This document shows, in pieces, positions 8,158 to 23,664 of a stretch of DNA of 64,000 bases. The stretch comes from Streptomyces halobius (lineage in GTDB: Bacteria > Actinomycetota > Actinomycetes > Streptomycetales > Streptomycetaceae): contig NZ_CP086322.1 in NCBI RefSeq assembly GCF_023277745.1, positions 8,804,001 through 8,868,000 on the forward strand. Direction: 5' to 3'. The translations under genes were made by a program, and so were the position numbers. Below the pieces are notes generated by a model. It was not told the origin of the DNA. It did not search any database and was given only the letters and a program-made list of their open reading frames with translations. The stretch's first letter is position 1. The number at the start of each line of letters is the position of its first letter.

Positions 8158-8311
8158 GGGGTCCTCCAGCTCGGGTGAGGTATGGACGGGGATCGCTGTG
8201 CTGCCAAGCGTCCGGTCCAGTGGATCGTCCGGATCAGCGGATTTCACATGGGGAACACCGCCCGGCCTGGATGGGTTGCATGCCGGGCTGACCGCCAGCC
8301 CGGCACGCGCC

Positions 8312-9550: not shown

Positions 9551-11029
9551 TCAGCCTTCCCGCTCGCGCCTGAGCTCCAGCCGCTGGTAGCCCTCCTGCC
9601 AGGGCCGGCGGCGTTCCATGGCGGCGCAGGCGGCGACGACCTGCGGTTCGTCGAAACGCCGGGCGGCGACCTGCAGGCCCACCGGGAGCCCAGCCGGGGT
9701 GTAGCCGGCGGGGACCGTGGCGGCGGGGCTGCCGATGAAGTTGTAGAGGCCGGTCAGACACCATCCGACGAGCGGGTTGACGCGCTGTCCCGCGACCTCG
9801 GAGGGGCCCACGGTGGTGCGGTCGGGGCCATTGGCGATCCGTGCCACCGAGGTCACCGGGCTCACGATGAGGTCGTACTCGTCGAAGACGTCCTCAAGGG
9901 AGTCGAGGAGTTCGGTCCGCAGGACGTCCTCAAGGCGGTAGTCGACTGCCGAAGGGCGGGCGCCCATCTCCAGGAGTTCCAGGTAGGTGGGGGCCATCCG
10001 CTCGCGGTGCGCGAGGACATCCACCCCGGCGCGCCGCATACGGGTGATGAACTCGACCTGGCGGACCGCCTGGAGGCGCCGCCACAGTGCCGTGAACTCC
10101 TGGTGAGGGCGTGGCAGTTTGACGTCGACCTCGACGACTTCGGCACCGTCGTCGATGAGCGCTCCGAGCGATTCGCGTACGACCGCGGCCACGTCGGGCT
10201 CGACGGGGAAGCCGCCGAGGTCGGGGGAGTAGGCCACACGCATACCGGTGAGCGGACGCCGCAGGGCGTCCGTGAGGCGCTCGGGCGCCTCGGGAAGCGA
10301 GTAGGGGTCCCGGGCATGCGGGCCGGCCAGCACCTCGAACATCAGCACACCGTCTGCCACGGTGCGGGCGAGCGGGCCGTAGCACACCATGGGGTTGAGC
10401 AGCCCGAACGCGTTGGGCCGTACCACGGTGGGTACCCGGCCGAAGGTCCCCATCAGGGCGAACACCCCGCACAGGGAGCCCGGGACGCGCAGTGAGCCGC
10501 CCGCGTCCGATCCCTGGGCGAAGGGCACCAGTCCTTCGGCGACAGCGGCGGCGCTGCCGCCCGACGAACCGCCCGCGTTGGCGGTCAGATCGAAGGGCGT
10601 GCTGGTGGGCCCGAACAGGAAGTTGTCGGTGATGGCCTTGTGGCCGAACTCCGGAGTGTTCGTTTTGCCGACGACGATGGCGCCGGCCCGCAGCAGGCGT
10701 TCGGCGCTCACTCCGCTGGCCTTGGGCACTTCGTTCTCGAAGGCGTAGGACGCCTGGGTGGTGCGGATGCCCGCCACCGGGTCGAGGTCCTTCACGCCTA
10801 TGGGCAGACCGTGCAGCGGAGGCAGCGGGGCGCCCGTGAGCACCTCGCGCTCGGCGCGCCGGGCGGCGTCCAGGGCTTCCTCGGCGCAGACGGTGACAAA
10901 AGCGTTGACGGTGGGGTTACGGCGCTCGATGCGGTCGAGGCAGGCCGTGACCAGTTCGACCGGGGACAGCTCCCGGCGGCGGATCAATCCGGCGAGGCGG
11001 GTGGCCGGCTGATAGGCGAGTTCATCCAT
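9551..11029 (-). CDS. Amidase-signature family hydrolase or amidotransferase
   Basis: 492 residues. The Ser-cisSer-Lys amidase triad is visible: Lys in 'LPIGVKDLDPVAG', then 'NAGGSSGGSAAAVAEGLVPFAQGSDAGGSLRVPGS' with both serines. The family hydrolyses or transfers amide nitrogen (GatA, fatty acid amide hydrolase, aryl amidases). ATG at 11029 follows GGAGGG by about 10 bases; the longer frame to 11266 runs through the end of the GriH-like gene. It lies in the same direction between the GriH-like gene and the AMP-ligase, so it may release or move an amide or urea-linked group in the pathway. Confidence 0.85.
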   Translation of the reverse strand: MDELAYQPATRLAGLIRRRELSPVELVTACLDRIERRNPTVNAFVTVCAEEALDAARRAEREVLTGAPLPPLHGLPIGVKDLDPVAGIRTTQASYAFENEVPKASGVSAERLLRAGAIVVGKTNTPEFGHKAITDNFLFGPTSTPFDLTANAGGSSGGSAAAVAEGLVPFAQGSDAGGSLRVPGSLCGVFALMGTFGRVPTVVRPNAFGLLNPMVCYGPLARTVADGVLMFEVLAGPHARDPYSLPEAPERLTDALRRPLTGMRVAYSPDLGGFPVEPDVAAVVRESLGALIDDGAEVVEVDVKLPRPHQEFTALWRRLQAVRQVEFITRMRRAGVDVLAHRERMAPTYLELLEMGARPSAVDYRLEDVLRTELLDSLEDVFDEYDLIVSPVTSVARIANGPDRTTVGPSEVAGQRVNPLVGWCLTGLYNFIGSPAATVPAGYTPAGLPVGLQVAARRFDEPQVVAACAAMERRRPWQEGYQRLELRREREG

Positions 11030-11129: not shown

Positions 11130-12248
11130 CTATTTCTCGACGCAGAACTCGCCCACCGGCCAGCCGACATGGCGCTGATCGGTCGCGAGATAGCCCATGA
11201 GCTGGTCGCCCTGTGTGAGTTCGGTGACATTGCGCACCGCGTCCCCGGGGCCGAGGACCCGCACATGCCAGTCGTCCTGGACGGCGAGGCTCACGAGGGT
11301 GCCGTCGTCTGCCCGGGTCTTGATGGTGAGCAGCGGGCGGGACTCGAGCTTGACGCGTCCGACAACGACTCGGCGGGTGCGTCCGGTGGTGCTGACGGCC
11401 AAGGCGGTGTCGCCGGCGCCGAGTTCGCTCAGGTAGTTGGTGCGGTTGTCGGTGCCGAGGACGTAGGACTGCAGAGCGCCGGCATTGACGCGGAACGGGC
11501 GGGTCGGCATGTAGGGCAGGGGGTGGGTCTCGCTGGAGCACAGGATGAACCCGTGTGAGTACGAGCCCACCAGGATGCCTTCGTCCTTGTGCAGATAGCT
11601 GCAGGTGTCGACGCACACCCGGTCGCCGAGGCCGCTGTGTTCGATGGATTCCACGGTCAGCTGAGTAAGCGTCAGCGGCGGGGTGTCGGTCTGCAGGAGT
11701 TCGGCCAGTTCCAGCACTTCGGCCACGGACTTCGGTGCGAGCAGGATGCCCTCCGAGCCCTTTTCCAGCACATCCAGGATGATCTTCGCTTCCTCCAGCG
11801 AGTCCGCCCGGCAGATCAGCTGCCCGGGGGCCTTGTCGGCCGCGGCGATCACGATCTCCAGAGGGATCTTGGTGGGATCCTTGAAGGTGACCGCGGTGTA
11901 GGGCAGGGCGCGGGCGGCGGAGCACGCCAGCGTCAGCGAACTGTCATCGGTGACCGGGACATGGGCGGCGACCGAGTCCTGTCCTTCGAGGGCCCGGCCC
12001 TGCAGCACGGCGAGGCCGTCGTCGTCCGTGACCTCGGTGAGCAGTACGTCGTAGCCGTCCCAGCCCTCGGCGGTCCCGTGGCCGGGCGTCGGGGCGGCCA
12101 GCACCTTGCGCACGGTCGGGGGGAGGGTGGCCAGGATCTCCGGTCCGTCGTCGACGATGCCGTCGATGCGGGCATGCACCGCCGCCTCGACGAGTGCCGC
12201 ACGCTGATCCGCGGAGACGGAGCGTATGTCAATCCAGGCGAACTTCAC
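11130..12248 (-). CDS. 3-dehydroquinate synthase II family protein, GriH-like (3-amino-4-hydroxybenzoate synthase)
   Basis: 372 residues of the DHQS-II family, recognised by 'VCVDTCSYLHKDEGILVGSYSHGFILCSSET', 'PTRPFRVNAGALQSYVL' and 'TNYLSELGAGD'. In archaea the family closes 2-amino-3,7-dideoxy-heptulosonate to dehydroquinate; in Streptomyces griseus GriH acts after GriI to form 3-amino-4-hydroxybenzoate (3,4-AHBA). The GTG start overlaps the GriI-like stop by 4 bases (12245-12248), the same paired arrangement as expected for a two-enzyme route. Since the plant-type and AroB routes serve primary metabolism in Streptomyces, a DHQS-II next to a GriI-like aldolase points to a secondary pathway. 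Confidence 0.88.
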   Translation of the reverse strand: MKFAWIDIRSVSADQRAALVEAAVHARIDGIVDDGPEILATLPPTVRKVLAAPTPGHGTAEGWDGYDVLLTEVTDDDGLAVLQGRALEGQDSVAAHVPVTDDSSLTLACSAARALPYTAVTFKDPTKIPLEIVIAAADKAPGQLICRADSLEEAKIILDVLEKGSEGILLAPKSVAEVLELAELLQTDTPPLTLTQLTVESIEHSGLGDRVCVDTCSYLHKDEGILVGSYSHGFILCSSETHPLPYMPTRPFRVNAGALQSYVLGTDNRTNYLSELGAGDTALAVSTTGRTRRVVVGRVKLESRPLLTIKTRADDGTLVSLAVQDDWHVRVLGPGDAVRNVTELTQGDQLMGYLATDQRHVGWPVGEFCVEK

Positions 12249-13066
12249 ATCGCACCTGCCAGTTCGGGTAGGGAGGTTGTCTTCGGGGCGGTTTCCGGCC
12301 GTGGGCCGTGGACGGCGGCGGTGAGGGTGCGGACCGCCGCCGCCGGATCGGGGTTGTGGAACACCTGGCGGCCGACGGCGAGTCCTCGGCAGCCGGCGTG
12401 CATCGCGAAACGTGCGAAGTCGGAGAGGTCGCGGCCGCCGCCGGGACCTCCGGCCACGACGACCGGGACCGGAGTCTTGGCGACGATGCCCGCCATGTCC
12501 TCCGCGGAGTCCGGCGCGACGGTTTTCACCACGTCGGCGCCGAGGTCGACGGCGATGCTCACCACATGCGCGAGGAGCGCGGGGTCACGCGGATCCTGGA
12601 TGCGGGGTCCCCGTGCGTACATCATCGCCAGCAGCGGCATACCCCATCGGTCACAGTCGGCCGCGATGGCGCCGAGGTCGGCGAGCTGCCGTTTCTCGGT
12701 GTCCGAGCCGACGTTGACGTGCACGCTGACCGCGTCCGCCCCGGCACGCACCGCTTCCTCGACGCCGCCGACGACGACCTTCGCATCGCCGTCGGGAGCG
12801 TGCGGAGTGCTGGCGCTGAGGTGAACGATCAGGGCGGCGCCCTGCAGCAGGCCCGGTTCGAGGGAACGGGCCCGCCCTTTGTGCACCACGATGGCATCGG
12901 CACCGGCGGCCACCACGTCACCGACGATCCGGCTGAAACCGGTGGCGTCGGAGATGGGGCCGTCGGCCACGGAATGGTCCATGGGAACGATGAGAAAGTT
13001 TCCGTCGCCGGGCCTTGAGAGCCGGGTCAGGCGCAGCGATTTTCCGCTCAGAGGTAGTAGGGGCAC
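12245..13066 (-). CDS. GriI-like class I aldolase (aspartate-semialdehyde plus C3-phosphate condensation)
   Basis: 273 residues of the DhnA/DeoC-type aldolase family. 'VPMDHSVADGPI' near the N-terminus, 'LLAMMYARGPRI' and 'ADVVKTVAP' (probable Schiff-base Lys) match GriI and archaeal ADH synthases. GriI joins L-aspartate semialdehyde with dihydroxyacetone phosphate to a C7 aminosugar that GriH aromatises to 3,4-AHBA. GTG at 13066 is preferred because GGAGG stands 5 bases before it; a GTG at 13084 has no such site. It is the first gene of the minus-strand run and is divergent from the FAD hydroxylase, with a shared 359-bp control region. Confidence 0.87.
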   Translation of the reverse strand: MPLLPLSGKSLRLTRLSRPGDGNFLIVPMDHSVADGPISDATGFSRIVGDVVAAGADAIVVHKGRARSLEPGLLQGAALIVHLSASTPHAPDGDAKVVVGGVEEAVRAGADAVSVHVNVGSDTEKRQLADLGAIAADCDRWGMPLLAMMYARGPRIQDPRDPALLAHVVSIAVDLGADVVKTVAPDSAEDMAGIVAKTPVPVVVAGGPGGGRDLSDFARFAMHAGCRGLAVGRQVFHNPDPAAAVRTLTAAVHGPRPETAPKTTSLPELAGAM

Positions 13067-13425
13067 AACACCCTCCGTAAGCACGGGTGATACGGGAACC
13101 GTCAGTCGGAACTGCGGATTGATAAGGACCCGGGAATGACGAACTCATGGGAAACGGGCCGGAACATTCCGGGGTGATGACTTTCTGAGTGCTCCGGCTT
13201 CAGCCCGTGTACGTTCCGGCCGGGTACAGATTCTTATGTCCGCGCGGCGTCCTGGGCAACATCCTCGGGGCTCCCTTGCCGAACGGAGAAGAAGTTGAGG
13301 GCTACAGCGGTACTTCGCCGGTCGGGCGGAGGTCAATTTCCCGGAACAGGCAACTCCGTTGGCGTCTTCGGTGTTCTGCGGGTGTCCGTGTCCTGAGGGG
13401 CAGCGTGCCTGTGGAGGAGAAGCCG
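13067..13425. promoter_or_regulatory. Divergent control region between the GriI-like gene and the FAD hydroxylase
   Basis: 359 bp separate two divergent starts of the locus. An open frame from 13189 runs into the hydroxylase gene but has no domain content. Promoters for both directions should lie here; no clear -10/-35 set or operator could be picked by eye. Confidence 0.45.
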
Positions 13426-14622
13426 ATGAGGAATGACATGCCGCCGCGTATCGCTGTGGTCGGAGGAGGGCTCGCGGGGCTGACGCTCGCGCTCGCGCTG
13501 CACCGCGCCGGGCTGGCGTGCCAGGTGTACGAACAGGCCCCACAGCTGGGTGAGGTGGGAGCGGGCATACAGTTGGCGCCGAGCGCGACCAGGCTGCTGC
13601 ATCGTCTCGGCCTGGAGCCTCCGCTGCGATCATTGGCCGTGGAGCCGGTGGGCATGGAGTTCCGCCGCTGGGCGGACAGTTCGGTGATCAGCCGTGGGCT
13701 GCTGGGAGCGCACTGTGAGCAGCGGTACGGCGCCCCTTACTACGCGCTGCACCGCGCCGATCTGCATCGGGTGTTGGTCGAGGCGCTGCCGGCGGGCACG
13801 ATCCGGCTGGACGCCAGGTGCGTCGACTTCCGGGAGGGGCCGGAGGGGGTGGTACTGCGGTTCGCGGACGGCACGGAGGCCGCGGCGGATGTCGCCGTCG
13901 GGGCCGACGGCATCCACTCCGTGCTGCGCCAGTCGCTGGTGGCCGACCGGCCGCGCGCCTTCGGCCAGTCCGTCTACCGGGGGCTGGTGGACGGCCGGCG
14001 GGTGCCCGAGCTGGTGGCGGAGCCCAGGGTGCTGCTGTGGCTGGGGCCGGGACGGCACTTCGTGTGCTATCCGGTGTCGGGGGGACGGCTGGTCAATTTC
14101 GTGGCGACGGTGCCCACCTCCGGCTCCACGGACGAGTCGTGGTCGCGCCGAGGCCGGGTCGAGGATGTGATCGCGGCGTACGAGCGATGGTGCGCGGATG
14201 TCACGTCGGTCATCGGCGCGGCGGACAAGGTGAGTCTGTGGGCGCTGCACGACCGGGCACCGGTGGAGCGATGGAGCACCGGCCGCATCACGCTCCTCGG
14301 TGATTCGGCGCACCCGATGCTGCCGTTCCTCGGCCAGGGCGCCAATCAGGCCGTCGAGGACGCGGTGGCTCTTGCGGGCTGTCTGCGGGACGCCGGGTCG
14401 CGCACGCTTCCCGCGGCCCTGGAGCGCTATGAGTCGATGCGCCGGCCCCGGACCACCGAGGTGCAGGAGCGTTCGCGAGGCAACAGCACGGCGTTCCATC
14501 TGCCGGACGGCGAGGCGCAGCGCGAGCGCGACGCGAGGATGGGTGCCCTCGCACCGGACGGGCCGGACTGGCTCTATGGATACGACGTCGAAGGCGCCCT
14601 GGCGGGCCGTCAGTCGACCTGA
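13426..14622 (+). CDS. FAD-dependent aromatic monooxygenase, salicylate-hydroxylase type
   Basis: 398 residues of the class A flavin hydroxylases. It has the dinucleotide fold 'RIAVVGGGLAGLTLALAL', the 'VGADGIHSVLR' DG motif and 'LLGDSAHPMLPFLGQGANQAVEDAVAL' (GD motif). Relatives hydroxylate phenolic acids ortho to OH, sometimes with loss of the carboxyl group. In a locus that should make 3,4-AHBA, ring hydroxylation or decarboxylative hydroxylation of that acid to an aminohydroquinone is a fair guess. ATG at 13426 follows GGAGGAG by 7 bases; GTG at 13405 is possible. A strong hairpin follows the stop codon. Confidence 0.85.
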   Translation: MRNDMPPRIAVVGGGLAGLTLALALHRAGLACQVYEQAPQLGEVGAGIQLAPSATRLLHRLGLEPPLRSLAVEPVGMEFRRWADSSVISRGLLGAHCEQRYGAPYYALHRADLHRVLVEALPAGTIRLDARCVDFREGPEGVVLRFADGTEAAADVAVGADGIHSVLRQSLVADRPRAFGQSVYRGLVDGRRVPELVAEPRVLLWLGPGRHFVCYPVSGGRLVNFVATVPTSGSTDESWSRRGRVEDVIAAYERWCADVTSVIGAADKVSLWALHDRAPVERWSTGRITLLGDSAHPMLPFLGQGANQAVEDAVALAGCLRDAGSRTLPAALERYESMRRPRTTEVQERSRGNSTAFHLPDGEAQRERDARMGALAPDGPDWLYGYDVEGALAGRQST

Positions 14623-14672
14623 GCTGCTGACACCGAGGAGTAGCGAGCTGCTCCCTGGGACAGCGTGATCCG

Positions 14673-14706
14673 GGCCCCCTGGACGGCTCCCGGCCTCCAG
14701 GGGGCC
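14673..14706 (+). terminator. Rho-independent-type hairpin after the FAD hydroxylase
   Basis: A perfect 11-bp stem (GGCCCCCTGGA at 14673-14683 and its complement at 14696-14706) with a 12-base loop lies 50 bp after the stop codon. It is followed by a weakly T-containing stretch. Confidence 0.75.
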
Positions 14707-15427
14707 ATACCTCTTCCTGAGCGCGCCGTCCGACTCCCGCTCGGAAGGTCCGCGATGCATGGCTGAAATCATTCCGCGCCTCCAATGATCGCCACGGTCA
14801 AGTGATCAGGGTTTTCGGCGAAGTCCACAGAGGTCGGATCCCCCGCCCCCTTTCGTCGCACTCTGGCGTCAATTCTCCGCCCTGTCCTCTGGAACACCGC
14901 AGCGCCCCAGAAGGTTGCGGACGACGCGTTTCAGGAGCACCGTTCGAGTCAAACCAACGGGCAGGTGCTTTTCCGTGATCGATTCCGGTCTTGTCCCGTA
15001 GAGTTTCGTCCACACCGCTCCCACCAGGGAGTATCAACCACTGGTTGATCGCTGAAGCATCATGGACTTGGGGCTCGCTTTAGTTTCCTTTTGACTACCT
15101 TTTAGTTGCTGACTCTCCGACACCTGAGGTTCTCTGGGGGGCAGTCCGGTAAATGCACGGGGGAGCTTCGGGCGATCAAGAAATAGACTGACCCAGTGGT
15201 CTGTTTCTCGCCGCAGACCGGACCATTGGAAGTAGCGGGGGTTCACAACGGGCCTAGGTCAGAGCGGACCGGCTTCGGGCGGATTTGTCTACACGCTCAC
15301 AACACCGGAATGATCTGACCCTTTTCGCGCTGCTCCGTGAGTGCATTCATCCCCTCTGCAAGCAAGCACGTACCGCGCCAGAGCGGGCGTGCGGCCGTAC
15401 CGTCGCATGCCCAACGGAGGAGCTCTA
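14707..15427. other. 720-bp gap with lower GC content and candidate operators
   Basis: No convincing gene. The stretch from about 15040 to 15200 is clearly lower in GC than its surroundings. It contains the palindrome at 15033-15049. It probably holds the promoter for the transposase-like gene at 15428. No transposon-style terminal inverted repeats could be matched to the region after that gene. Confidence 0.45.
15033..15049. promoter_or_regulatory. 17-bp palindrome, candidate operator
   Basis: ATCAACCACTGGTTGAT is a perfect palindrome of two 8-bp arms around a central C. It stands in the low-GC stretch ahead of the transposase-like gene and is a plausible repressor or activator site. No regulator can be assigned. 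Confidence 0.4.
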
Positions 15428-16708
15428 GTGATCGTCACCCAGTGCGCCACCAGGCCGACGGCCGTTGCGATACCGAACGCGATAGCGGCCGCGGCGACCA
15501 TGCGGAAACCCGCGCCCCCAGGGGTCGCCGACGTTCCGCTGCCGGACCCACCGTCCCCAGCCGGTTCCCGGTGCCCATCCGTCACTGCCGGCCAGCGGGT
15601 CCCAGCTGCCGGGGAAAGTCAACTGGCCGCTGCTCTCAACGAGTTGGGAGAGCTGATCGGTCCGCTTTTCGCCCGCCCCGAACCACGTGCTCAGGCGATG
15701 CAGTATGCCCTGGGCCTGCTCGCCGTCGGCGGGCGCAGCAACACCTGGCAGCTGGCTCAGCGGGTGGGGGACGCTTCGCCCTGGCGGATGCAGCGCCTGC
15801 TGACACGGGCCCGATGGGATGCCGACGCCGTTCAGGAAACGGTCCGCGGCTACCTCTCCGCATACCTGGGGCACCCCGGGGCGATGCTGGTCCTCGGGCA
15901 GAGCGACGCTTTGAAGAAAGGCGGGAAGACGGTCGCCGCGGCCCGGCAGTACACCGAGCTCACCCGGCGCGTCGAGAACTGCCAGACCGCCGTCATGACC
16001 GCCTATATCTCCCCGCGCGGCCAGGCCCTGATCGACCGTGAGCTGCATCTGCCGGAGTCCTGGACCGACGATCCGCAACGCTGCGTCAAGGCCGGCGTCC
16101 CCGAGGAGCGCCTCGCGTACCGGACCAAGGCCGAGCTGGCCCGGATGATGATCGAGCGCGCCGAGGCGTCGTCCGTACCGTTCCAGTGGGTGTGCGGCGG
16201 ACAGGACTACGGCCAGGACGAGGAACTGCGCGGCTGGCTTGAGCAGAAAGGTATCGGCTACGTCCTCGCCGTGCCCGCCGGACGTCTCGACGCGGCCTCG
16301 GTCGCTGCCGCCCTGCCGAGGCAGCGCTGGTGGCCGTCCCCCGGTGCCCCGGGCGACCCCGGAACCGTTCCCGGCAGATGGACCCGGGTGATGGCACCAA
16401 GCGCACCGCATTGGGGACCGGCGGCGCCTCCCGGTGACGGCTTCGCCCGCTTCCTGTTGCTGCACCGCCGGCCCGACGCGCCACGGACCGAGTGCTATCT
16501 GGTGCACGCCCCTCGGGACACCCGATCCGGTGCCATGGTGACCGCTGCGCTGGCCCGCCACCAGGCGCGGCGCTACGTGGACACCGCCCGGCTGCACACC
16601 GGTCTCGACCGGCACGAGATCCGCACCTGGACCGCCTGGTACCGGCACACCACGCTCTCCCTCCTGGCCCTGGCGGCCCATACGGTCGCCACGAGCCGGA
16701 CCGACTGA
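15428..16708 (+). CDS. IS701-type transposase-like protein without the DDE triad
   Basis: 426 residues with the IS701 DDE fold easily traced: 'RAQAMQYALGLLAVGGRSNTWQLAQRVGDASPWRMQRLL', 'RQYTELTRRVENCQTAVMTAYIS', 'LIDRELHLPESWTDD', 'YVLAV' and 'WYRHTTLSLLALAAHTV'. The catalytic places are changed. The usual 'DDTGFLKKG' is 'GQSDALKKG' (about 157-165); the usual 'ADEVYG' is 'GGQDYG' (257-262); the usual 'EECFQTAKGE' is 'RRYVDTARLH'. The frame is otherwise intact. GTG at 15428 follows GGAGGA by 6 bases. A protein that keeps the fold but not the chemistry suggests a domesticated DNA-binding protein, possibly a regulator of the SznE/SznF-like genes that follow. It may instead be a dead copy not yet frameshifted. 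Confidence 0.8.
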   Translation: MIVTQCATRPTAVAIPNAIAAAATMRKPAPPGVADVPLPDPPSPAGSRCPSVTAGQRVPAAGESQLAAALNELGELIGPLFARPEPRAQAMQYALGLLAVGGRSNTWQLAQRVGDASPWRMQRLLTRARWDADAVQETVRGYLSAYLGHPGAMLVLGQSDALKKGGKTVAAARQYTELTRRVENCQTAVMTAYISPRGQALIDRELHLPESWTDDPQRCVKAGVPEERLAYRTKAELARMMIERAEASSVPFQWVCGGQDYGQDEELRGWLEQKGIGYVLAVPAGRLDAASVAAALPRQRWWPSPGAPGDPGTVPGRWTRVMAPSAPHWGPAAPPGDGFARFLLLHRRPDAPRTECYLVHAPRDTRSGAMVTAALARHQARRYVDTARLHTGLDRHEIRTWTAWYRHTTLSLLALAAHTVATSRTD

Positions 16709-17080
16709 CAACCGGGCAGCACCCAACTCTTGGGCCGTTCCGAGCGTTCTGTACGGAGTAGGCGCCTGCTCGTTTCCCGGTTCGACGACCATGGTGCCGC
16801 GCCGGGATGATGCCTGCGCAGAATCCGATGGCGATTCTCTTCTTTTACGGCTGCTCAGGTGTTGACTTGCGGAAAGTGTGGGTCAAATCCCTGCCAGTTT
16901 CTTGAAGGAATCTCCAAGTACCGCAGTAGGAACACACTCGGAAAGCCAGTCCTGTTGCCCCTTGCCCAGCCCCTGTGACGGATGCTGTCCTGAGCGAAGA
17001 ACGACCCGCTTTGCCCCCATGGGCAGGACACAACCCCGTTATTTCGGGAATTCCTTCCGGAGGAGCGTGCACACACTGTC
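16709..17080. promoter_or_regulatory. 372-bp gap before the SznE-like gene
   Basis: No coding signal. The middle (16830-16930) is lower in GC and is the likely promoter region for the SznE-SznF-Rieske-ATP-grasp-LysE run. A GGAGGAG motif at about 17059-17065 stands some 15 bases before the ATG at 17081, longer than ideal. Confidence 0.4.
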
Positions 17081-18166
17081 ATGAGTATTTCCGCTAACTC
17101 CCTGACCAACGGGAGTAAAGAATTCCGGGACGAGGAATTCACCACGCCCGACGTCGACGGGTCTCCGGGACTGCGTCTCGCGCTCGCCTCGTTGCAGTCA
17201 CAGGCGCAGGAGCTGAACCGGCTGGTGACCGCCACGCTCGACACCATGGCCCAGCCCCGGGAGAAGCTCGCCCCCCACACCGCGGCCTTCGCCGAGATCG
17301 CCACCCGTTCGATCCCGCGCTGGCACTTCGCGATGCTCAACGACACCGAACGCAATGACGCCCTCATCGTGGCGCTGGAGCGCCGGATCCCGGCCGGTGC
17401 CCACGTCCTGGACATCGGCACCGGCACCGGTCTGCTGGCCATGGCCGCGGCGCGGGCAGGCGCCGGACGGGTCGTCACCTGCGAGGAGAACCCGCTGCTC
17501 GTCGAGATCGCCCGCCAGATCATCGACCGGCACGGGATGTCCGACGTCATCACCGTGGTCAACAAACGCTCCACCCATCTGGCGATGGGCATCGACCTGG
17601 AGCGCCCGGTCGATGTCCTCATCTCCGAGGTCGTCGACTGCGGGCTGATCGGCGAGGGCCTGCTGCCCACGATGCGTCACGCCCGGGAGCATCTGCTCGC
17701 CCCGGGCGGGGTCCTGATCCCCGGTGCGGCGCGGCTGTACGGCCAGCTCATCCAGAGCGAGGTGACCAACGGGCTCAACCGGGTAGGAAACGCCGGCGGT
17801 TTCGATGTGTCGCTGATGAACGTGGCGTCGACCCGCGGGCACTTCCCCGTACGGCTGCACACCTGGCCGCACGACATCCTCTCCGGCCCCGTCGAGCTGC
17901 TGGACTTCGATCTGCTCGACGGTCCGCTGGAGGCCGGAAGCCGGGCGGTACGCCTGCCGGCCACCGCCGCGGGACCGGCACACGCGCTGGTCGCCTGGTT
18001 CGAACTCGACCTCGGCTCCGGAGTCGTACTGCGCAACTCTCCCGACAACGTCGGGTCCCACTGGATGCAGGCGCTGATCCCGTTCGACAAGCCCGTCCCG
18101 GTCACCCCGGGCGACGAGCTGGACGTGGAACTGCACTGGACCGACTACAGCCTCTCCGCGCGCTGA
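17081..18166 (+). CDS. SznE-like arginine N-methyltransferase (PRMT fold)
   Basis: 361 residues with a class I SAM fold of the PRMT7-like type. 'HVLDIGTGTGLLAMAAARAGAGRVVTCEEN' (about 108-137) is motif I/post-I, and 'ISEVVDCGLIGEGLLPTMRHA' (181-200) is the PRMT double-E loop with Glu183 and Glu192; the C-terminal half is the PRMT beta-barrel. In streptozotocin biosynthesis SznE (StzE) methylates free L-arginine to N-omega-methyl-L-arginine for the next enzyme. The order here is the same: 39 bp downstream lies the SznF-like gene. By context this is a small-molecule methyltransferase rather than a protein-modifying one. The substrate assignment depends on the neighbour but is strong. Confidence 0.9.
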   Translation: MSISANSLTNGSKEFRDEEFTTPDVDGSPGLRLALASLQSQAQELNRLVTATLDTMAQPREKLAPHTAAFAEIATRSIPRWHFAMLNDTERNDALIVALERRIPAGAHVLDIGTGTGLLAMAAARAGAGRVVTCEENPLLVEIARQIIDRHGMSDVITVVNKRSTHLAMGIDLERPVDVLISEVVDCGLIGEGLLPTMRHAREHLLAPGGVLIPGAARLYGQLIQSEVTNGLNRVGNAGGFDVSLMNVASTRGHFPVRLHTWPHDILSGPVELLDFDLLDGPLEAGSRAVRLPATAAGPAHALVAWFELDLGSGVVLRNSPDNVGSHWMQALIPFDKPVPVTPGDELDVELHWTDYSLSAR

Positions 18167-18205
18167 GCATCCGTACCCATCTCACAGGAAGGCCGACTTG
18201 ATCAG

Positions 18206-19627
18206 ATGAGCCACACTCCGTTCCCCTACGAACCGTACGAACTGCACGGCAAGGAGCTGCGCGACGCGGTCGTGCGCTATGCGAGCAACCCCCTCTATCT
18301 CGACAACGAGGAGTGGGAGAACAGCGACAACCCCTATCGGCGCCAGCTGCGCCCGCAGGTGCTCGCGCACCTGGACTTCGACCGTGTCCCGGGACGCGAC
18401 GAATTACTCGACTACAGCAGCCTGGCCGTGCAGCGACTGCTTACCACGGTGTACGAGGCCGACCTGGTCTTCCTGCCCAAGTCGGGGCTGAAGGGCACGT
18501 GGGAGGACTTCAAGCGGTTCTACAGCCCGACCAACCGGGTGCTGGGCGAGATGATCCGGCCCGCGCTGGAACGGTATGCCTTCGGCTTCCTCGACAGGGA
18601 GGTGGAGACTTCCGGGAACTGGACGGCCGAGAGCCTGGAGGCGTATCTGGAATCGCTCAACGCCCACGAACCCGCCGGGGCTTCCCTGGCCGAGCAGGCC
18701 ATCGCCGACTCCACCGACCGTGAGCGTGCGGCCCGTATGTGGCTCATCCAGTTCGCCCCGGACTTCCTCTCCGAGGCGTCGCCGATGATCCGGAACGTGC
18801 TCGGCTACTACGGTGCCGCCCAGTCCGAATGGTTCAAGATCATCATCGATGAGTACGGCTACGGGGTGCACGACACCAAGCACAGCAAGCTCTTCGAGCG
18901 CACCCTGGAGTCGGTCGGCCTGCAGGCCGATGTCCACCGGTACTGGCAGTACTACCTCAACAGCAGCCTGCTGATGAACAACTACTTCCACTACCTGGGC
19001 AAGAACCACGAACTGTTCTTCCGGTACGTCGGCGCGCTCTACTACACCGAGGCCACACTGGTGGACTTCTGCCGCCGGGCCACCGCACTGCTCAAGGACG
19101 TCTTCGGCGACCGCGTCGACACCCAGTACTTCACCGAGCATGTGCACATCGACCAGCACCACGGACGGATGGCGCTGGAGAAGCTGATCCGCCCCCTCGT
19201 CGAGGAGCACGGCGAGGAGATCATTCCGGAGATCGTCCGGGGCATCGAGGAGTACCGCCGCATCCAGGACCTCGCCGACGAGGACTTCGCCACGCAGATC
19301 GGCTGGATGGACAACGGCCCCGAGTTCAAGAAGCTCCACGCGCCTGTGTGGGAGGCCATCAAGAGCGGCCGGGTGACCGCCCCCGTCGCCGATATCGTCG
19401 AGCCGTACGGCGAACTGTCCAACACCCACTGCCACGACGGTGACGAACTGTGCCACATCGTGTCCGGGACGATGAAGTTCGTCTCCGGCTTCGACTCGCA
19501 CCAGATTCTCGAAGCGGGCGAGGGCACCGTCATCCAGCGCAACCGTCTGCACGGCGCGATCATCGAGTCCGAGGAGTGCGTCTATCAGATCCACTCGGTG
19601 GGGGACTACAAGAAGTGCATGTCGTGA
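18206..19627 (+). CDS. SznF-like N-nitrosating metalloenzyme (heme-oxygenase-like diiron domain plus cupin)
   Basis: 473 residues; SznF is about 471. The helical central domain carries Glu190, Glu216, His226, His312, Asp316 and His319, each one residue from the recalled SznF diiron ligand positions. The C-terminal cupin has 'NTHCHDGDE' with His408 and His410, and 'RLHGAI' with His449, again one off the SznF iron site. SznF hydroxylates N-omega-methyl-L-arginine twice with the diiron site, then the cupin iron rearranges the guanidine into an N-methyl-N-nitrosourea, which can also release nitric oxide. All metal ligands are kept, so both steps are expected. The stop codon overlaps the Rieske start. 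An independent check of the substrate is not possible from sequence. Confidence 0.93.
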   Translation: MSHTPFPYEPYELHGKELRDAVVRYASNPLYLDNEEWENSDNPYRRQLRPQVLAHLDFDRVPGRDELLDYSSLAVQRLLTTVYEADLVFLPKSGLKGTWEDFKRFYSPTNRVLGEMIRPALERYAFGFLDREVETSGNWTAESLEAYLESLNAHEPAGASLAEQAIADSTDRERAARMWLIQFAPDFLSEASPMIRNVLGYYGAAQSEWFKIIIDEYGYGVHDTKHSKLFERTLESVGLQADVHRYWQYYLNSSLLMNNYFHYLGKNHELFFRYVGALYYTEATLVDFCRRATALLKDVFGDRVDTQYFTEHVHIDQHHGRMALEKLIRPLVEEHGEEIIPEIVRGIEEYRRIQDLADEDFATQIGWMDNGPEFKKLHAPVWEAIKSGRVTAPVADIVEPYGELSNTHCHDGDELCHIVSGTMKFVSGFDSHQILEAGEGTVIQRNRLHGAIIESEECVYQIHSVGDYKKCMS

Positions 19628-19944
19628 CGTTCTCCGTGGCCGGCCGGAACAACTGCGCGGTGGTGGCCGGCGAACCCTATGTCTACGCGCGGACCGACGA
19701 GGGGGCCTTTGTGATGCGGGCCCGCTGCCCGCACCGCGGTGGCCCGCTGCACCTGGCCACGCTGGCCCCCGAACGCAACCGGCTGGTGTGCCCGTGGCAC
19801 GAGCGCAAGACGTCGCTGACCCGGCTGCGACAGGAGATCCCCGCTGTGCGCAGCGGTGACACCGTCACCGCGGTCTTTCCCGGGACGCCCGACGCCACGG
19901 TCGGCTTCGGACACCGGCCGCTGTCGGTGGACCTGGCGGGATGA
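19624..19944 (+). CDS. Rieske [2Fe-2S] protein
   Basis: 106 residues with the Rieske signature 'CPHRGGPLHLATLAPERNRLVCPWH': Cys-X-His then Cys-X2-His with 17 residues between. The GTG start at 19624 overlaps the TGA of the SznF-like gene by 4 bases, so the two are translationally coupled. The protein is soluble and short, like the ferredoxins of dioxygenases. The overlap suggests it feeds electrons to the SznF-like diiron centre (inference). No partner reductase is encoded nearby. Confidence 0.88.
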   Translation: MTFSVAGRNNCAVVAGEPYVYARTDEGAFVMRARCPHRGGPLHLATLAPERNRLVCPWHERKTSLTRLRQEIPAVRSGDTVTAVFPGTPDATVGFGHRPLSVDLAG

Positions 19945-20060
19945 CTTCGCAGCGCGGCCGGGACTTCGGCGGTCCCGGCCGCGGCAGACCGCCCCCGTAC
20001 CCGGGACCGGGCACACCCACATGACACCGAGACCCCATCGAGCGGACAAGGAAACCTGCT

Positions 20061-21335
20061 GTGTCCCCGTATCCTTCCGGCAGCCCCGCCGTCATCGTCG
20101 ACCCGTTCTCCTCCGGTGGCCTGTATGCCCCGGCCTTCCGCGCGGCGGAAGTCCCGGTGATGGCCGTCGTCTCGTACCCGGAGATTCCCCCGGCCTACGC
20201 CGGGTCCTTCCGTCCCGAGGACTTCGACGAGGTCCTGACCTGGACCGGGAAGGAAGACGCGCTGGTGGAGCGACTGCGGGAGCTGCGGCCGCGCTGCGTC
20301 CTGCCGGGCGCCGAGATCGGTGTGGAACTCGCCGACCGGCTGGCGGCACAGGTCGTCCCCGAGGTGGCGAACGTTCCCGCTCTGGCGGCGGCCCGCCGTC
20401 ACAAGTACGCCATGGCGCAGGCCGTTGCGGCGGCCGGGCTGCCGGTGCTGCGGCAGCTGTGCTGCGACGACGCGGACGAGGTCGCCGCCTGGCTCGAACG
20501 GGAAGGGCTGACCGGCCACGACCTGGTGGTGAAGCCGCCGAAGAGCGCGAGTACGGACGGGGTGACACGGATCGTCGGCGGGCGCGGCTGGCGCCAGGAG
20601 TTCGAGGCCCAGCTCGGCCGACTGAACCAGTGGCAGATCCCCAACGACCAGATGCTGGTGCAGGAGTACGCGACGGGCACCGAGTATGTCGTGGACGTCT
20701 TCAGCCACTCGGGCACGCACACCGTCACCGATGTGTGCCGCTATCGCAAGATCGACAGCGGCGGACAGATGGCGGTGTACGAATCCATGGACTGGGTTCC
20801 CGAGGACCGGCCCGAGGTGCCGGAGCTCGTTCGCTACACCCGGGGCGTGCTGGACGCGGTCGGCTTCCGGTGGGGCGCCGCACATGTCGAGGTGATGATG
20901 ACCGCCGACGGGCCGCGGCTGATCGAGGTCAACGCCCGCCCGCACGGCGGCGGCCACCCGCGCTTCTGCCGCACCGCGACCGGCGACAGCCAAGTCGACC
21001 GGGCAGTGGCGTACTTCACCGGCCGGGGCCCGGTGCCGAGCGGCTATGAGCTGCACCGACGAGTGCGCGTGGTGTTTCTGATCAGCCGGTCGTCCGGGAT
21101 TGTGCGGAACGCCGAAGTCCTCCATGACATAAAGGAGGTGACGAGCCACCATGTCTCTGCGGTGCCGGTGCGCAACGGCGACCGCATCGCCCCGACGAAG
21201 GACCTGCTGGGCACACTGTCCCTCGGGTTCGTGGTACTCGCCCATGAGGACCCGGCGCAGCTCGACGCCGACCACGCCGCGATCCGGCGGATCGAATCGC
21301 TGCTGACGGTGGATCCGGAGGCGGACGCGGCATGA
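20061..21335 (+). CDS. ATP-grasp ligase (carboxylate-amine or carboxylate-thiol type)
   Basis: 424 residues. The ATP-grasp fold is marked by 'DLVVKPPKSASTDGV' (nucleotide-binding loop), 'QEYATGTEYVVDV', and the metal-binding 'RLIEVNARPHGGGHPRF' . The pattern is closest to the BacD/L-amino-acid-ligase and carbamoyl-phosphate-like branch, which joins a carboxylate to an amine through an acyl phosphate. The GTG start has AAGGAA upstream. It is 116 bp after the Rieske gene and 106 bp before the LysE gene. A likely job is to form an amide between the aromatic acid and an amino acid, or to use the nitrosourea amino acid as a partner. Confidence 0.85.
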   Translation: MSPYPSGSPAVIVDPFSSGGLYAPAFRAAEVPVMAVVSYPEIPPAYAGSFRPEDFDEVLTWTGKEDALVERLRELRPRCVLPGAEIGVELADRLAAQVVPEVANVPALAAARRHKYAMAQAVAAAGLPVLRQLCCDDADEVAAWLEREGLTGHDLVVKPPKSASTDGVTRIVGGRGWRQEFEAQLGRLNQWQIPNDQMLVQEYATGTEYVVDVFSHSGTHTVTDVCRYRKIDSGGQMAVYESMDWVPEDRPEVPELVRYTRGVLDAVGFRWGAAHVEVMMTADGPRLIEVNARPHGGGHPRFCRTATGDSQVDRAVAYFTGRGPVPSGYELHRRVRVVFLISRSSGIVRNAEVLHDIKEVTSHHVSAVPVRNGDRIAPTKDLLGTLSLGFVVLAHEDPAQLDADHAAIRRIESLLTVDPEADAA

Positions 21336-21441
21336 GCCCTCCCGGCCCGGAGACGCTCGCCTGCGCACACGGACTTCGTATGTCCGGTCACCGCGGTCGG
21401 CGCCCGCGAAGACCCGGCGGAGAGCGCCTCGGGAGGCACCC

Positions 21442-22095
21442 ATGATCAGCGGGTTCTTCCTGGGCAGTTCACTTCTCGTGATCACGACACCTGGACCGGA
21501 CGCGGCACTGGTCACCCAGCTGGTGCTGCGCACCGGGCGGCGGACTCCCGCGCTCGCCGCCGCGGTGGGCATGCTGACGGCGGGCGCTCTCCATGCGACG
21601 CTTGCCATCAGCGGAGTGTCGCTCGTGCTCGCCGGCCGGCCGGAGCTGTTCACCGCCGTTCGCTGGTGTGGTGCGGCGGTCATGCTGTTATGGGGCATAC
21701 GGGCCCTGCGGGCCGCGCTGCGCCCGGACTGCCCGTCGCCGCGGGAGCCGGGGCAGGATGCCCGGCAGCCGGCCCCGACATCCCTGCGGCGCTGCTGGCT
21801 GCAGGGCCTGCTGTGCACCGGCAGCAACCCCAAGGTCGGGCTGTTCCTGCTGGCGTTCCTGCCGCAGTTCGTGCCACCGGGGGATCCCCCGGCACGCACC
21901 ATGGCGGTGCTCGCCGCCGTCCATCTGTCGCTGGCGGCACTGTGGCTGGCTTTTCTGAGCGGCGCGGTGCATCTGCTGCGCCGCTGGGTGGCCGCGCGCC
22001 GGCCCCATGCCGGCGCCGGCATGGGGCGAGTGGTCGAGGCGGTGGTGGGGACAGTGTTCATCGCATTCGCCGTCCGGCTGGGACTCGGTGGGTGA
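21442..22095 (+). CDS. LysE/RhtB-type amino acid exporter
   Basis: 217 residues with about six membrane segments. 'VITTPGPDAALVTQLVLRTGRRTPALAAAVGMLTAG' is the family's N-terminal signature, and 'GLLCTGSNPKVGLFLLAFLPQFV' the central one. Family members export amino acids and small amino-acid-like compounds. Being last in the SznE/SznF-like run, it could export the nitrosourea product or its amino-acid leaving part. It converges on the ogt gene with only 17 bp between stops. Confidence 0.88.
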   Translation: MISGFFLGSSLLVITTPGPDAALVTQLVLRTGRRTPALAAAVGMLTAGALHATLAISGVSLVLAGRPELFTAVRWCGAAVMLLWGIRALRAALRPDCPSPREPGQDARQPAPTSLRRCWLQGLLCTGSNPKVGLFLLAFLPQFVPPGDPPARTMAVLAAVHLSLAALWLAFLSGAVHLLRRWVAARRPHAGAGMGRVVEAVVGTVFIAFAVRLGLGG

Positions 22096-22857: not shown

Positions 22858-23664
22858 TCACGCGGCTATCGGCCGGCAGCTCTTGCAGGCCCGGTATCCC
22901 GCCTCGCGGGCGGCCCGCGCCGAGCGGAACGGCACCTGGTGGGACGGGGTGATCCGGCGCGCGTGGGCACAGGTCGGGTGGCAGTAGATACGCGTGGTAT
23001 CGCTGCCGAGAAACACCGTCCCCCTGCGGGACAGCCCCACCAACGCGTCGTCGATACCCTCGGCACCGCGCAGCACCGCCCCGACTACGGGGCCGTACCG
23101 CAGGTCGCAGGGACCCCCCTCATCGAAGGTGACCCGATGACATGGGATCAGCAGCGGCACCGGATTGACCTCAAGGGCCTCGGTGACAGCGGCGGTCCCG
23201 GAGAGCGCGGCCTCCCGCGCCACCCAGGCAAGCGGCCGCAACTGACCGCGTGGAATGGTGCGTACCGCTTCGAGCACCGTGCACTCCACTTCGGTGAGCT
23301 CCGGCAGATCGATCCGCAGCCCCTTGGCACGCCCGGTGCGCAGGGCGGTCCGCAGCCCCGGCAGGGGCCTCGTCGTACGGATCGCGCTCCGGCCCGTGCG
23401 GGCGAGGTGTGCTTCCTCGAACGCCTCGGGGCCGGGCAGCGTTCTGCCGAGCGCTGCTCCCGTCACGGCTTCCGCCCCGTACGCGACGTACAGCCCGCCG
23501 GCGGGGGCGTCGAGGTGCAGATACATGTCGTATCGGTCCCTCGGGACGCCCACCCGCTGCAGCACCCGTGCCGCGAAGTCCGTCGGAGCGGGACCCACAA
23601 GTCCCGCCAGGGCCGCCTCCACGCCGCCGTCCGGCTGCGTGGTCCTTTCCCCACCTCGGTTCAC
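22858..23664 (-). CDS. MGMT-type methyltransferase with a C-terminal Ada zinc domain
   Basis: 268 residues with the Ada parts in reverse order. Residues about 40-205 are the alkyltransferase, with 'LLIPCHRVTFDEGG' and Cys175. Residues 213-268 are the Ada metal-binding domain: 'RIYCHPTC' and 'YRACKSC' give Cys228, Cys232, Cys260 and Cys263. In Escherichia coli Ada the zinc domain is N-terminal and takes methyl from phosphotriesters to turn on transcription. No AraC helix-turn-helix is present here. The GTG start follows GGGAGG and overlaps the stop of the ECF sigma gene by 4 bases, so it should be co-translated with that sigma factor. Confidence 0.88.
   Translation of the reverse strand: MNRGGERTTQPDGGVEAALAGLVGPAPTDFAARVLQRVGVPRDRYDMYLHLDAPAGGLYVAYGAEAVTGAALGRTLPGPEAFEEAHLARTGRSAIRTTRPLPGLRTALRTGRAKGLRIDLPELTEVECTVLEAVRTIPRGQLRPLAWVAREAALSGTAAVTEALEVNPVPLLIPCHRVTFDEGGPCDLRYGPVVGAVLRGAEGIDDALVGLSRRGTVFLGSDTTRIYCHPTCAHARRITPSHQVPFRSARAAREAGYRACKSCRPIAA

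What the first reader, a model, noticed from the sequence alone, without database searches (positions are those of the whole stretch)
12245..22095. SznE/SznF-type nitrosourea enzymes joined with a GriI/GriH-type aminohydroxybenzoate route
Seen: within 10 kb stand an intact GriI-like/GriH-like pair, an aromatic FAD hydroxylase, an SznE-like methyltransferase, an SznF-like enzyme with all metal ligands, a Rieske protein, an ATP-grasp ligase and an exporter. Known: GriI/GriH make 3-amino-4-hydroxybenzoate; SznE/SznF turn L-arginine into an N-methyl-N-nitrosourea amino acid that may also give off nitric oxide. Inferred: the locus makes either an aromatic compound with a nitrosourea on the amino group, or uses the released NO to nitrosate the aminophenol (C-nitroso, N-nitroso or o-diazoquinone product). 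I do not know a described product from this combination.
Basis: partly seen in the sequence, partly recalled or inferred. Interest (0 to 1): 0.95.

Follow-up and report, generated by a model that had tools for sequence, protein, structure and literature searches.

The report
Nitrosourea cluster with aminohydroxybenzoate module
This stretch of a Streptomyces chromosome looks like one gene cluster that joins the enzymes making streptozotocin's DNA-methylating nitrosourea group with enzymes making an aromatic amine, with DNA-repair genes at both edges that would protect the producer, and so probably makes a compound not yet described.

Summary
Observation confirmed and extended. The SznF homologue is 75.8% identical to crystallised SznF and keeps all ten functional positions checked; GriI/GriH, SznE, Rieske, ATP-grasp, FAD hydroxylase and LysE genes are intact. 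The unit is larger than reported: about 1.88-24.30 kb is collinear in four Streptomyces genomes and collinearity stops at both ends. Methylation-repair genes lie at both edges: a 3-methyladenine glycosylase (left; only in these four) and Ogt, Ogt-Ada and an ECF sigma factor (right; widespread in szn-type clusters). An amidase that recurs in szn-type clusters sits inside the Gri gene string. A second szn-type cluster with a more divergent Gri pair occurs in Sphaerisporangium, in another SznF lineage. A streptozotocin-type locus (SznF 93%) lacks amidase and Gri but has SznH- and SznJ-position genes, which the window's genome lacks at comparable identity. Of 11 amidase loci, a HAD phosphatase accompanies 6 of 6 without Gri and 0 of 5 with Gri, suggesting an exchangeable acceptor module. 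Best reading: an N-methyl-N-nitrosourea with an aminohydroxybenzoate-derived part, the nitrosocarbamoyl group being passed on by the amidase. The joint cluster is well supported; the transfer step is inferred. The NO-nitrosation alternative is not supported.

The parts
2290..2907 (+). 3-methyladenine DNA glycosylase (Tag family), left edge; the frame is open from 1600 and a weak Ada_Zn-like stretch precedes it
   Evidence: PF03352 218 bits; Ada_Zn 22.6 bits, just under cut-off; found in 4 of 25 SznF loci, the window's own clade only
3459..4949 (+). FAD-linked (berberine-bridge-type) oxidase
   Evidence: PF01565 and PF08031; in the four collinear species only
5056..5799 (-). short-chain dehydrogenase
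   Evidence: PF13561 203 bits; 52% relatives near SznF in L015 and L020
5993..7516 (-). MFS exporter, DHA2/EmrB type
   Evidence: PF07690; TIGR00711 312.7 bits, over cut-off
7633..8247 (-). small cupin (start probably 8157)
   Evidence: PF07883 67 bits; codon-periodic divergence over four species
8312..9544 (-). short AMP-ligase without C-terminal domain, probably activates 3,4-AHBA
   Evidence: PF00501 only; same neighbour of GriH in L095 and L096 at 44-50%; AhbL2 analogy (PMC10179220 passages)
9551..11029 (-). amidase-signature enzyme, proposed N-methyl-N-nitrosocarbamoyl transferase
   Evidence: PF01425 315 bits; Lys and Ser motifs and start site; in 11 of 25 SznF loci
11130..12248 (-). GriH-like 3,4-AHBA synthase (DHQS II family)
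   Evidence: PF01959 362 bits; NF002625 over cut-off
12245..13084 (-). GriI-like aldolase
   Evidence: PF01791; MJ0400 211 bits; D33, Y153, K184 kept
13302..13315 (+). 14-nt site CTACAGCGGTACTT shared with the sznE upstream region (suggestive only)
   Evidence: kept in four species; weak against the null
13411..14622 (+). FAD aromatic monooxygenase
   Evidence: PF01494 113 bits; closest solved chains tropone 2-monooxygenase and 4-hydroxybenzoate decarboxylase-type hydroxylase; 44% relative beside Gri in L096
15341..16708 (+). IS701-like protein without the conserved acidic residues, kept upstream of sznE
   Evidence: NF033540 274 bits; residue loss; 7 of 25 loci
16916..16929 (-). second copy of the 14-nt site, upstream of sznE
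17081..18166 (+). SznE-like arginine N-methyltransferase
   Evidence: PF22528 PRMT_C; 59% to the SznE-position gene of L091
18206..19627 (+). SznF-like N-nitrosourea-forming enzyme (HDO plus cupin)
19624..19944 (+). Rieske ferredoxin-like protein
   Evidence: PF00355 33 bits; CxH and CxxH motifs visible
20061..21335 (+). ATP-grasp L-amino-acid ligase type (SznK position)
   Evidence: PF13535; L-amino acid ligase 30vh 171 bits; 56% to L091
21442..22095 (+). LysE-type exporter
   Evidence: PF01810 104 bits
22113..22844 (-). O6-alkylguanine-DNA alkyltransferase (Ogt)
   Evidence: PF01035 99 bits; PCHR motif
22858..23763 (-). alkyltransferase fused to Ada metal-binding domain
   Evidence: PF01035 and PF02805; PCHR motif
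23664..24251 (-). ECF sigma factor, right edge
   Evidence: PF04542 and PF08281; homologues in 13 of 25 SznF loci

Best explanation
The block at about 1.9-24.3 kb is one biosynthetic cluster of the szn (streptozotocin) type that makes a DNA-methylating N-methyl-N-nitrosourea carrying a 3-amino-4-hydroxybenzoate (3,4-AHBA)-derived aromatic part. Shown by sequence: SznE and SznF with intact functional residues, which by the literature turn arginine into the N-methyl-N-nitrosourea amino acid; an intact GriI/GriH pair; methylation-repair genes at both edges. Inferred: GriI/GriH make 3,4-AHBA, the short AMP-ligase activates its carboxylate and the FAD enzyme hydroxylates it. The amidase, standing in for the SznJ-position hydrolase, takes the N-methyl-N-nitrosocarbamoyl group off the SznF product through a serine acyl-enzyme and passes it to the aromatic amine (in streptozotocin the acceptor is an amino sugar). 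The ATP-grasp ligase (SznK position) couples an amino acid at some stage; the MFS and LysE carriers export. Tag, Ogt and Ogt-Ada repair the producer's own methylated DNA; the ECF sigma factor may control them.
For: SznF residues and 75.8% identity. Whole block collinear in four species, with breaks at both ends. Repair genes at both edges; two MGMT genes and a sigma factor also mark the streptozotocin clusters (PMC12224297 section 9). The amidase recurs in seven SznF loci outside the window clade at 57-63% and stands between GriH and the AMP-ligase (gaps about 100 and 6 nt). In 392 genus genomes the amidase (E up to 1e-130) is in 4, all among the 8 with SznF. Amidase and SznJ-type hydrolase are nearly complementary over 25 loci: 10 amidase only, 13 hydrolase only, 1 both, 1 neither. 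No comparable SznJ or SznH in the window's genome: best matches 28% and 41%, partial. HAD gene in 6 of 6 amidase loci without Gri and 0 of 5 with Gri. Second Szn plus Gri locus in another SznF lineage, with an arylamine N-acetyltransferase. The amidase family includes aryl acylamidase, biuret hydrolase and allophanate hydrolase.
Against: No product, expression or enzyme data. The amidase also occurs without Gri, and in G362 stands with a HAD gene about 3.1 Mb from SznF, so it may serve another purpose such as detoxification. The left-edge glycosylase is in 4 of 25 loci, all one clade, so its membership is less sure than that of the right-edge genes; four other Ogt-family genes lie elsewhere in the genome. 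The Sphaerisporangium GriH is only 39% identical, and a joint Gri origin is not rejected (p-AU 0.438), so independent recruitment is unproven. The shared 14-nt site is weak. The Gri loci are two lineages and the HAD loci three, so the exclusion rests on few independent events.
Confidence: 0.45

Rival explanations
1. Amide conjugate: the nitrosourea amino acid stays intact and is joined to AHBA or another amino acid by the AMP-ligase and the ATP-grasp ligase, giving a masked warhead; the amidase trims or unmasks it.
For: The ATP-grasp protein is closest to L-amino-acid ligases (30vh; NF005543 over cut-off and weaker dapdiamide A synthase match). The short AMP-ligase neighbours GriH in clusters without szn genes. 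ClbL, a colibactin amidase, is among the weaker amidase relatives.
Against: The same ATP-grasp gene is in streptozotocin-type loci, whose product is not a peptide (recalled); it does not explain why the HAD gene and Gri exclude each other.
Confidence: 0.33
2. Two neighbouring pathways: a szn-type nitrosourea and a separate AHBA-derived metabolite that share a locus, not a molecule.
For: The AMP-ligase, GriH and GriI trio also stands without szn genes in Actinokineospora, and GriI is common (82 of 392 genus genomes). Divergent transcription and an IS701-like ORF lie between the halves.
Against: One collinear block in four species; repair genes at both edges; a szn-associated amidase inside the Gri gene string; a second szn-type cluster with Gri; no comparable SznH or SznJ in the genome, which leaves a nitrosourea pathway incomplete without the Gri-side amidase.
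Confidence: 0.14
3. NO route: NO or nitrite from breakdown of the SznF product nitrosates the aminophenol, giving a C-nitroso, N-nitroso or o-diazoquinone product.
For: The SznF product can lose NO without an enzyme (PMC11705231 passages); CreM-type diazotising enzymes are AMP-ligases (PMC11429834 passages) and an AMP-ligase is present.
Against: No tyrosinase-type or CreD-type lyase family among the island genes scanned (the rest of the genome was not searched). The ligase is 410 aa and of the short kind; L095 and L096 carry a separate 539-567 aa AMP-ligase besides the short one. The repair genes answer DNA methylation.
Confidence: 0.05

Closest known systems
Streptozotocin cluster (szn/stz, BGC0002313 and BGC0002294), here seen through locus L091 (SznF 93% to 6m9r)
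   Same: SznE, SznF, Rieske, SznK-position ATP-grasp, LysE, Ogt, Ogt-Ada and sigma factor, 51-77% identical
   Different: The window lacks the SznH-, SznI- and SznJ-position genes and the 2OG/AlkB-like gene and adds amidase, GriI/GriH, AMP-ligase, FAD hydroxylase, cupin, BBE oxidase, SDR, MFS and Tag
Amidase plus HAD szn-type clusters (L005, L006, L007, L008, L010, L019)
   Same: SznE, SznF, Rieske, ATP-grasp and the same amidase family (57-62%)
   Different: They carry a HAD phosphatase and no Gri pair
Sphaerisporangium corydalis locus L014/L030
   Same: szn set plus GriI, GriH and amidase
   Different: Also has SznH- and SznJ-type genes, an arylamine N-acetyltransferase and a P450; other SznF lineage; GriH only 39%
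3,4-AHBA clusters (grixazone, cremeomycin, ahbamycin, crexazone, ferroverdin/bagremycin)
   Same: GriI/GriH-type pair; ligase and cupin as in ahbamycin (PMC10179220 passages)
   Different: None of the texts seen puts SznE/SznF beside them; curated BagB/FevI and BagC/FevH cut-offs are not reached
Region of NZ_CP047019.1 described in PMC12224297
   Same: Gri-like pair with two MGMT genes and a sigma factor like those of streptozotocin clusters (section 9)
   Different: CreD/CreE-like genes are described and no SznF is named; the sequence was not examined here
Gramibactin/chalkophomycin-type SznF relatives (GrbD, ChmM)
   Same: Same HDO plus cupin family (PMC10849742 passages)
   Different: Those lie with NRPS/PKS genes; no NRPS condensation or PKS domain was found in the island genes scanned

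Membership tests
szn-type nitrosourea cluster | SznF with six HDO ligands, three cupin histidines and the cupin tyrosine | tested here: met
   EHEHDH and HHHY, 75.8% identity
szn-type nitrosourea cluster | SznE-type arginine methyltransferase directly upstream, Rieske protein directly downstream | tested here: met
szn-type nitrosourea cluster | O6-alkylguanine transferases and sigma factor in the cluster | tested here: met
   literature parallel
streptozotocin cluster proper | SznH- and SznJ-position genes (assigned here by gene order only) | tested here: not met
   absent in the 64-kb window; best matches in the whole genome 41% and 28%, partial
streptozotocin cluster proper | 2OG/AlkB-like gene | tested here: not met
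   no match in the window
szn-type nitrosourea cluster | product contains an N-nitrosourea | not testable with these tools
   needs chemistry
GriI/GriH 3,4-AHBA pair | adjacent DhnA-type aldolase and DHQS II-family protein in a host with its own type I DHQ synthase | tested here: met
GriI/GriH 3,4-AHBA pair | catalytic residues of the aldolase (recalled from MJ0400) | tested here: met
GriI/GriH 3,4-AHBA pair | curated AHBA-synthase models (BagB_FevI, BagC_FevH; product-specific) | tested here: not met
   281.5 against 500 and 408.1 against 750 bits
GriI/GriH 3,4-AHBA pair | makes 3,4-AHBA | not testable with these tools
   needs an enzyme assay
cremeomycin-type diazo cluster | CreD/CreE-type nitrite genes and a full-length CreM-type ligase beside the Gri pair | tested here: not met
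   no CreD-type lyase family and only a 410-aa ligase among island genes scanned; direct comparison with Cre proteins and the rest of the genome not done
aromatic C-nitrosation (NspF/FevJ-type) | tyrosinase-like copper enzyme | tested here: not met
   no such family among island genes scanned; rest of the genome not searched
IS701 transposase (ORF 15341-16708) | over the curated family cut-off | tested here: met
   273.9 against 150 bits
IS701 transposase (ORF 15341-16708) | conserved acidic residues (taken as the DDE triad, inferred) | tested here: not met
   columns D 12/14, D 14/14, E 13/14 in genomic IS701 copies: kept by 0, 1 and 0 of 7 cluster homologues; the window keeps none

The most novel reading that the evidence does not exclude
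szn-type clusters are modular nitrosocarbamoyl donors with exchangeable acceptor modules: the amidase (or, in the streptozotocin type, the SznJ-position hydrolase) is a dedicated N-methyl-N-nitrosocarbamoyl transferase, and in this cluster GriI/GriH have taken the place of the HAD-phosphatase module, so that the organism makes a natural aromatic N-methyl-N-nitrosourea, the first as far as the searches here show.
Probability: 0.33. Interest if true: 0.87.

Novelty: new variant of a known kind. Interest (0 to 1): 0.74.

Why it matters
According to the 2024 review seen in passages (PMC11705231), SznF/StzF is the only enzyme known to build an N-nitrosourea, and the step from its product to streptozotocin is only attributed to SznH, SznJ and SznK as likely. 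A cluster that keeps the donor-making genes, lacks SznH and SznJ and carries an amidase plus an aromatic-amine module makes that unknown transfer step directly testable. It also predicts a new kind of DNA-methylating natural product and a self-protection signature (alkyltransferases plus glycosylase) for finding more.

Tried and rejected
Rejected: (a) the IS701-like ORF as an insertion splitting two clusters: homologues lie upstream of sznE in 7 of 25 loci, their divergence tracks that of SznE, and conserved acidic residues are lost. (b) GriH as the shikimate enzyme: a type I DHQ synthase gene is elsewhere. (c) A Gri-szn link in Actinokineospora: in A. globicatena one Gri pair is about 72 kb from a SznF on the same contig; in A. 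terrae the contig length shows a different contig for the pair checked; not counted as a link. (d) SznH/SznJ supplied from elsewhere in the genome: best matches 41% and 28%, partial.

Led nowhere or weak: the shared 14-nt promoter site, whose degenerate base was chosen after seeing both sites; 388 of at most 3000 random pairs of window stretches do as well. The class-wide SznF search matched only the window genome and G365 (2 of 394). Viral contigs held no GriI relative. Plasmid records hold only SznF relatives under 60% (10 records). The AU test did not decide whether the Gri pairs share one origin.

Rows left out of the 25-locus counts: L021 (the window's own SznF) and L022 (a 26% partial match in the same genome); L023 and L024 (same genomes as L001 and L005); L025-L028 (counted through the longer stretches L091-L094); L029 (44% partial). 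L030 is the continuation of L014. L004, L012, L013, L016 and L019 are cut by contig ends, so absences there are weaker. L012's genome was not held. A 34% amidase in L011 was not counted as the szn-type amidase. In one search only four candidates per genome were scored.
Full report
WHAT IS THERE. The window lies at 8.80-8.87 Mb of a 9.24-Mb single-contig genome of the genus of S. piniterrae (G365 matches L001). The SznF homologue gives 841 bits to the crystallised enzyme 6m9r, is 75.8% identical and keeps the ten functional positions checked (positions from passages of PMC11705231). GriI and GriH overlap by 4 nt and match the aldolase and DHQS II families; the genome has a type I dehydroquinate synthase elsewhere, so the pair is not needed for shikimate.

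THE UNIT IS BIGGER THAN REPORTED. Window DNA is collinear with S. piniterrae, S. chattanoogensis and S. natalensis from about 1.88 to 24.30 kb, and collinearity stops at both ends in all three (S. piniterrae has scattered further matches downstream). The left edge holds a 3-methyladenine DNA glycosylase (2290-2907), with a weak Ada_Zn-like stretch in the same frame. The right edge holds an O6-alkylguanine transferase, a second one fused to an Ada_Zn domain, and an ECF sigma factor. Codon-periodic divergence exposed one more gene, a small cupin at 7633-8247. N-methyl-N-nitrosoureas leave O6-methylguanine and 3-methyladenine in DNA (recalled), which is what these genes repair. Streptozotocin clusters carry two MGMT genes, a 2OG oxygenase and a sigma factor (PMC12224297, section 9 read). 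Over 25 SznF loci, Ogt is found in 18, Ogt-Ada in 12 and the sigma factor in 13, but the glycosylase only in the window's four-species clade; so the right edge is firmly szn-type and the left edge less certain. Four further Ogt-family genes lie elsewhere in the genome.

HOW THE HALVES ARE KNIT. The minus-strand string runs GriI, GriH, amidase, AMP-ligase, cupin, MFS, SDR (gaps -4, about 100 to the amidase start at 11029, 6, 154, 116, 193 nt); that it is one operon is inferred. The amidase is 57-63% identical to amidases in seven SznF loci outside the window clade (L005, L006, L007, L008, L010, L014/L030, L019). In 392 genomes of the genus it occurs (E up to 1e-130) in 4, all among the 8 with SznF. 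In one of these, G362, it stands with a HAD phosphatase and an MFS-like ORF (named by eye) about 3.1 Mb from SznF, so the link is by genome and not always by cluster.

COMPARATIVE ANATOMY. Twenty SznF loci came from genome contigs and four more were lengthened from genus genomes; with the window, 25. A Gri pair lies within the fetched flanks in 5 of 25: window, L001, L002, L003, L014. L091, whose SznF is 93% identical to 6m9r, reads sigma, Ogt-Ada, Ogt, 2OG/AlkB-like, SznE, SznF, Rieske, ATP-grasp, MFS, alpha/beta hydrolase, ATP-grasp, LysE. That order fits the letters E to K, so the first ATP-grasp, the hydrolase and the second ATP-grasp are taken as SznH, SznJ and SznK (inferred from order; the primary papers were not held). 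The review attributes the late steps to SznH, SznJ and SznK as likely. The window keeps the SznK-position gene (56%). SznH- and SznJ-type genes are absent from the window, and the best matches anywhere in its genome are partial, 41% and 28%. Across the 25 loci, 10 have the amidase only, 13 the hydrolase only, L014 both and L016 neither (L016 also lacks SznE and has Phe at the first cupin histidine). Among the 11 amidase loci a HAD gene accompanies 6 of 6 without Gri and 0 of 5 with Gri. By the SznF tree these are three HAD lineages and two Gri lineages, so the pattern rests on few independent events.

A SECOND COMBINATION. L014/L030 (Sphaerisporangium corydalis) has SznE, SznF, Rieske, hydrolase, ATP-grasp, LysE, GriH (39%), a second ATP-grasp, GriI (59%), an arylamine N-acetyltransferase, a P450, the amidase, the SznH-type ATP-grasp, an MFS, a sigma factor and an Ogt-Ada relative. 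In the SznF tree it groups with Actinokineospora loci (100/100), away from the window clade. In the GriI tree it also stands outside the window clade, but a joint Gri origin is not rejected (p-AU 0.438). GriI itself is common (82 of 392 genus genomes); SznF is rare (8 of 392, one a 44% partial).

THE GRI SIDE ALONE. In Actinokineospora, GriI, GriH and a short AMP-ligase (44-50%) stand together without SznF in the fetched stretch, in one case with a relative of the FAD enzyme (44%). In the ahbamycin cluster a ligase overlapping ahbH is proposed to adenylate 3,4-AHBA, and a cupin is listed (PMC10179220 passages). The short ligase therefore most likely belongs to AHBA handling.

MECHANISM. Shown: intact genes and their arrangement. 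From the literature: SznE methylates arginine, and SznF makes the N-nitrosourea amino acid without external nitrite. Inferred: the amidase, whose solved relatives include aryl acylamidase, biuret hydrolase and allophanate hydrolase and which keeps the Lys and Ser motifs, takes the nitrosocarbamoyl group as an acyl-enzyme and hands it to the AHBA-derived amine. I put about 0.8 on one joint cluster making a nitrosourea with an AHBA-derived part, and about 0.45 on the fuller statement with this transfer. The main rival is an amide conjugate in which the nitrosourea amino acid stays whole. The NO route is unlikely: no tyrosinase-type or CreD-type family was seen among the island genes scanned, and the repair genes answer methylation.

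CO-REGULATION. A 14-nt site stands upstream of sznE and between griI and the FAD gene and is kept in four species; the sznE copy is also in L004, and a two-mismatch form is upstream of sznE in L091. A null of random window pairs does as well in 388 of at most 3000 draws, so this is only suggestive.

LITERATURE. Searches over open-access papers (several listings capped) showed no described product or cluster joining SznF with an AHBA pathway; the three papers holding both SznF and AHBA were seen in passages. Crooke et al. (PMC10849742, passages) report 135 other proteins of the SznF group in szn-type clusters, so such clusters are known as a class; the passages seen do not mention this combination. 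PMC12224297 (section 9) describes a region with Gri-like, CreD/E-like and streptozotocin-like repair genes but names no SznF. Supplementary data and MIBiG were not available.

VERDICT. Observation confirmed, extent corrected, first interpretation partly supported: a new variant of a known kind, with a directly testable mechanism.

Noticed in passing
window 15341-16708; L001-L004, L006, L007: An IS701-like protein has lost its conserved acidic residues and is kept just upstream of sznE in 7 of 25 loci, as if domesticated; its role is unknown.
   Followed up: partly
L098 10328-14076 (G362): An amidase-HAD-MFS-like trio of the kind found in szn-type clusters stands alone about 3.1 Mb from the streptozotocin-type cluster of the same genome.
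   Followed up: partly
L016 3713-5119: A SznF relative without a neighbouring SznE has Phe in place of the first cupin histidine while keeping the six HDO ligands; it may hydroxylate without forming the N-N bond.
   Followed up: no
L095 5869-17966 (Actinokineospora globicatena): A Gri cluster without SznF in the fetched stretch carries two AMP-ligases, two O-methyltransferases, two FAD hydroxylases and an Ada-type regulator, which suggests another DNA-alkylating or diazo product.
   Followed up: partly
window 13302-13315 and 16916-16929: A 14-nt site occurs in opposite orientation upstream of sznE and between griI and the FAD gene; it also brackets the IS701-like gene, so it could be an operator or an old element end.
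   Followed up: partly
window, cluster genes: TTA codons occur in 6 of 19 cluster genes (BBE oxidase, AMP-ligase, sznF, lysE, ogt, sigma), hinting at bldA control of both halves.
   Followed up: no
plasmid records NZ_AP024146.1, NC_014533.1, NZ_CP082345.1, NZ_CP032326.1: SznF relatives of about 40-42% identity on plasmids of Methylobacterium, Gloeothece, Pantoea and Azospirillum, one with an annotated Rieske gene under the match.
   Followed up: no
L015 18918-19637 and L020 18441-19160: The window's SDR has 52% relatives 7-8 kb downstream of SznF in two Actinokineospora loci without Gri in the fetched flanks.
   Followed up: no
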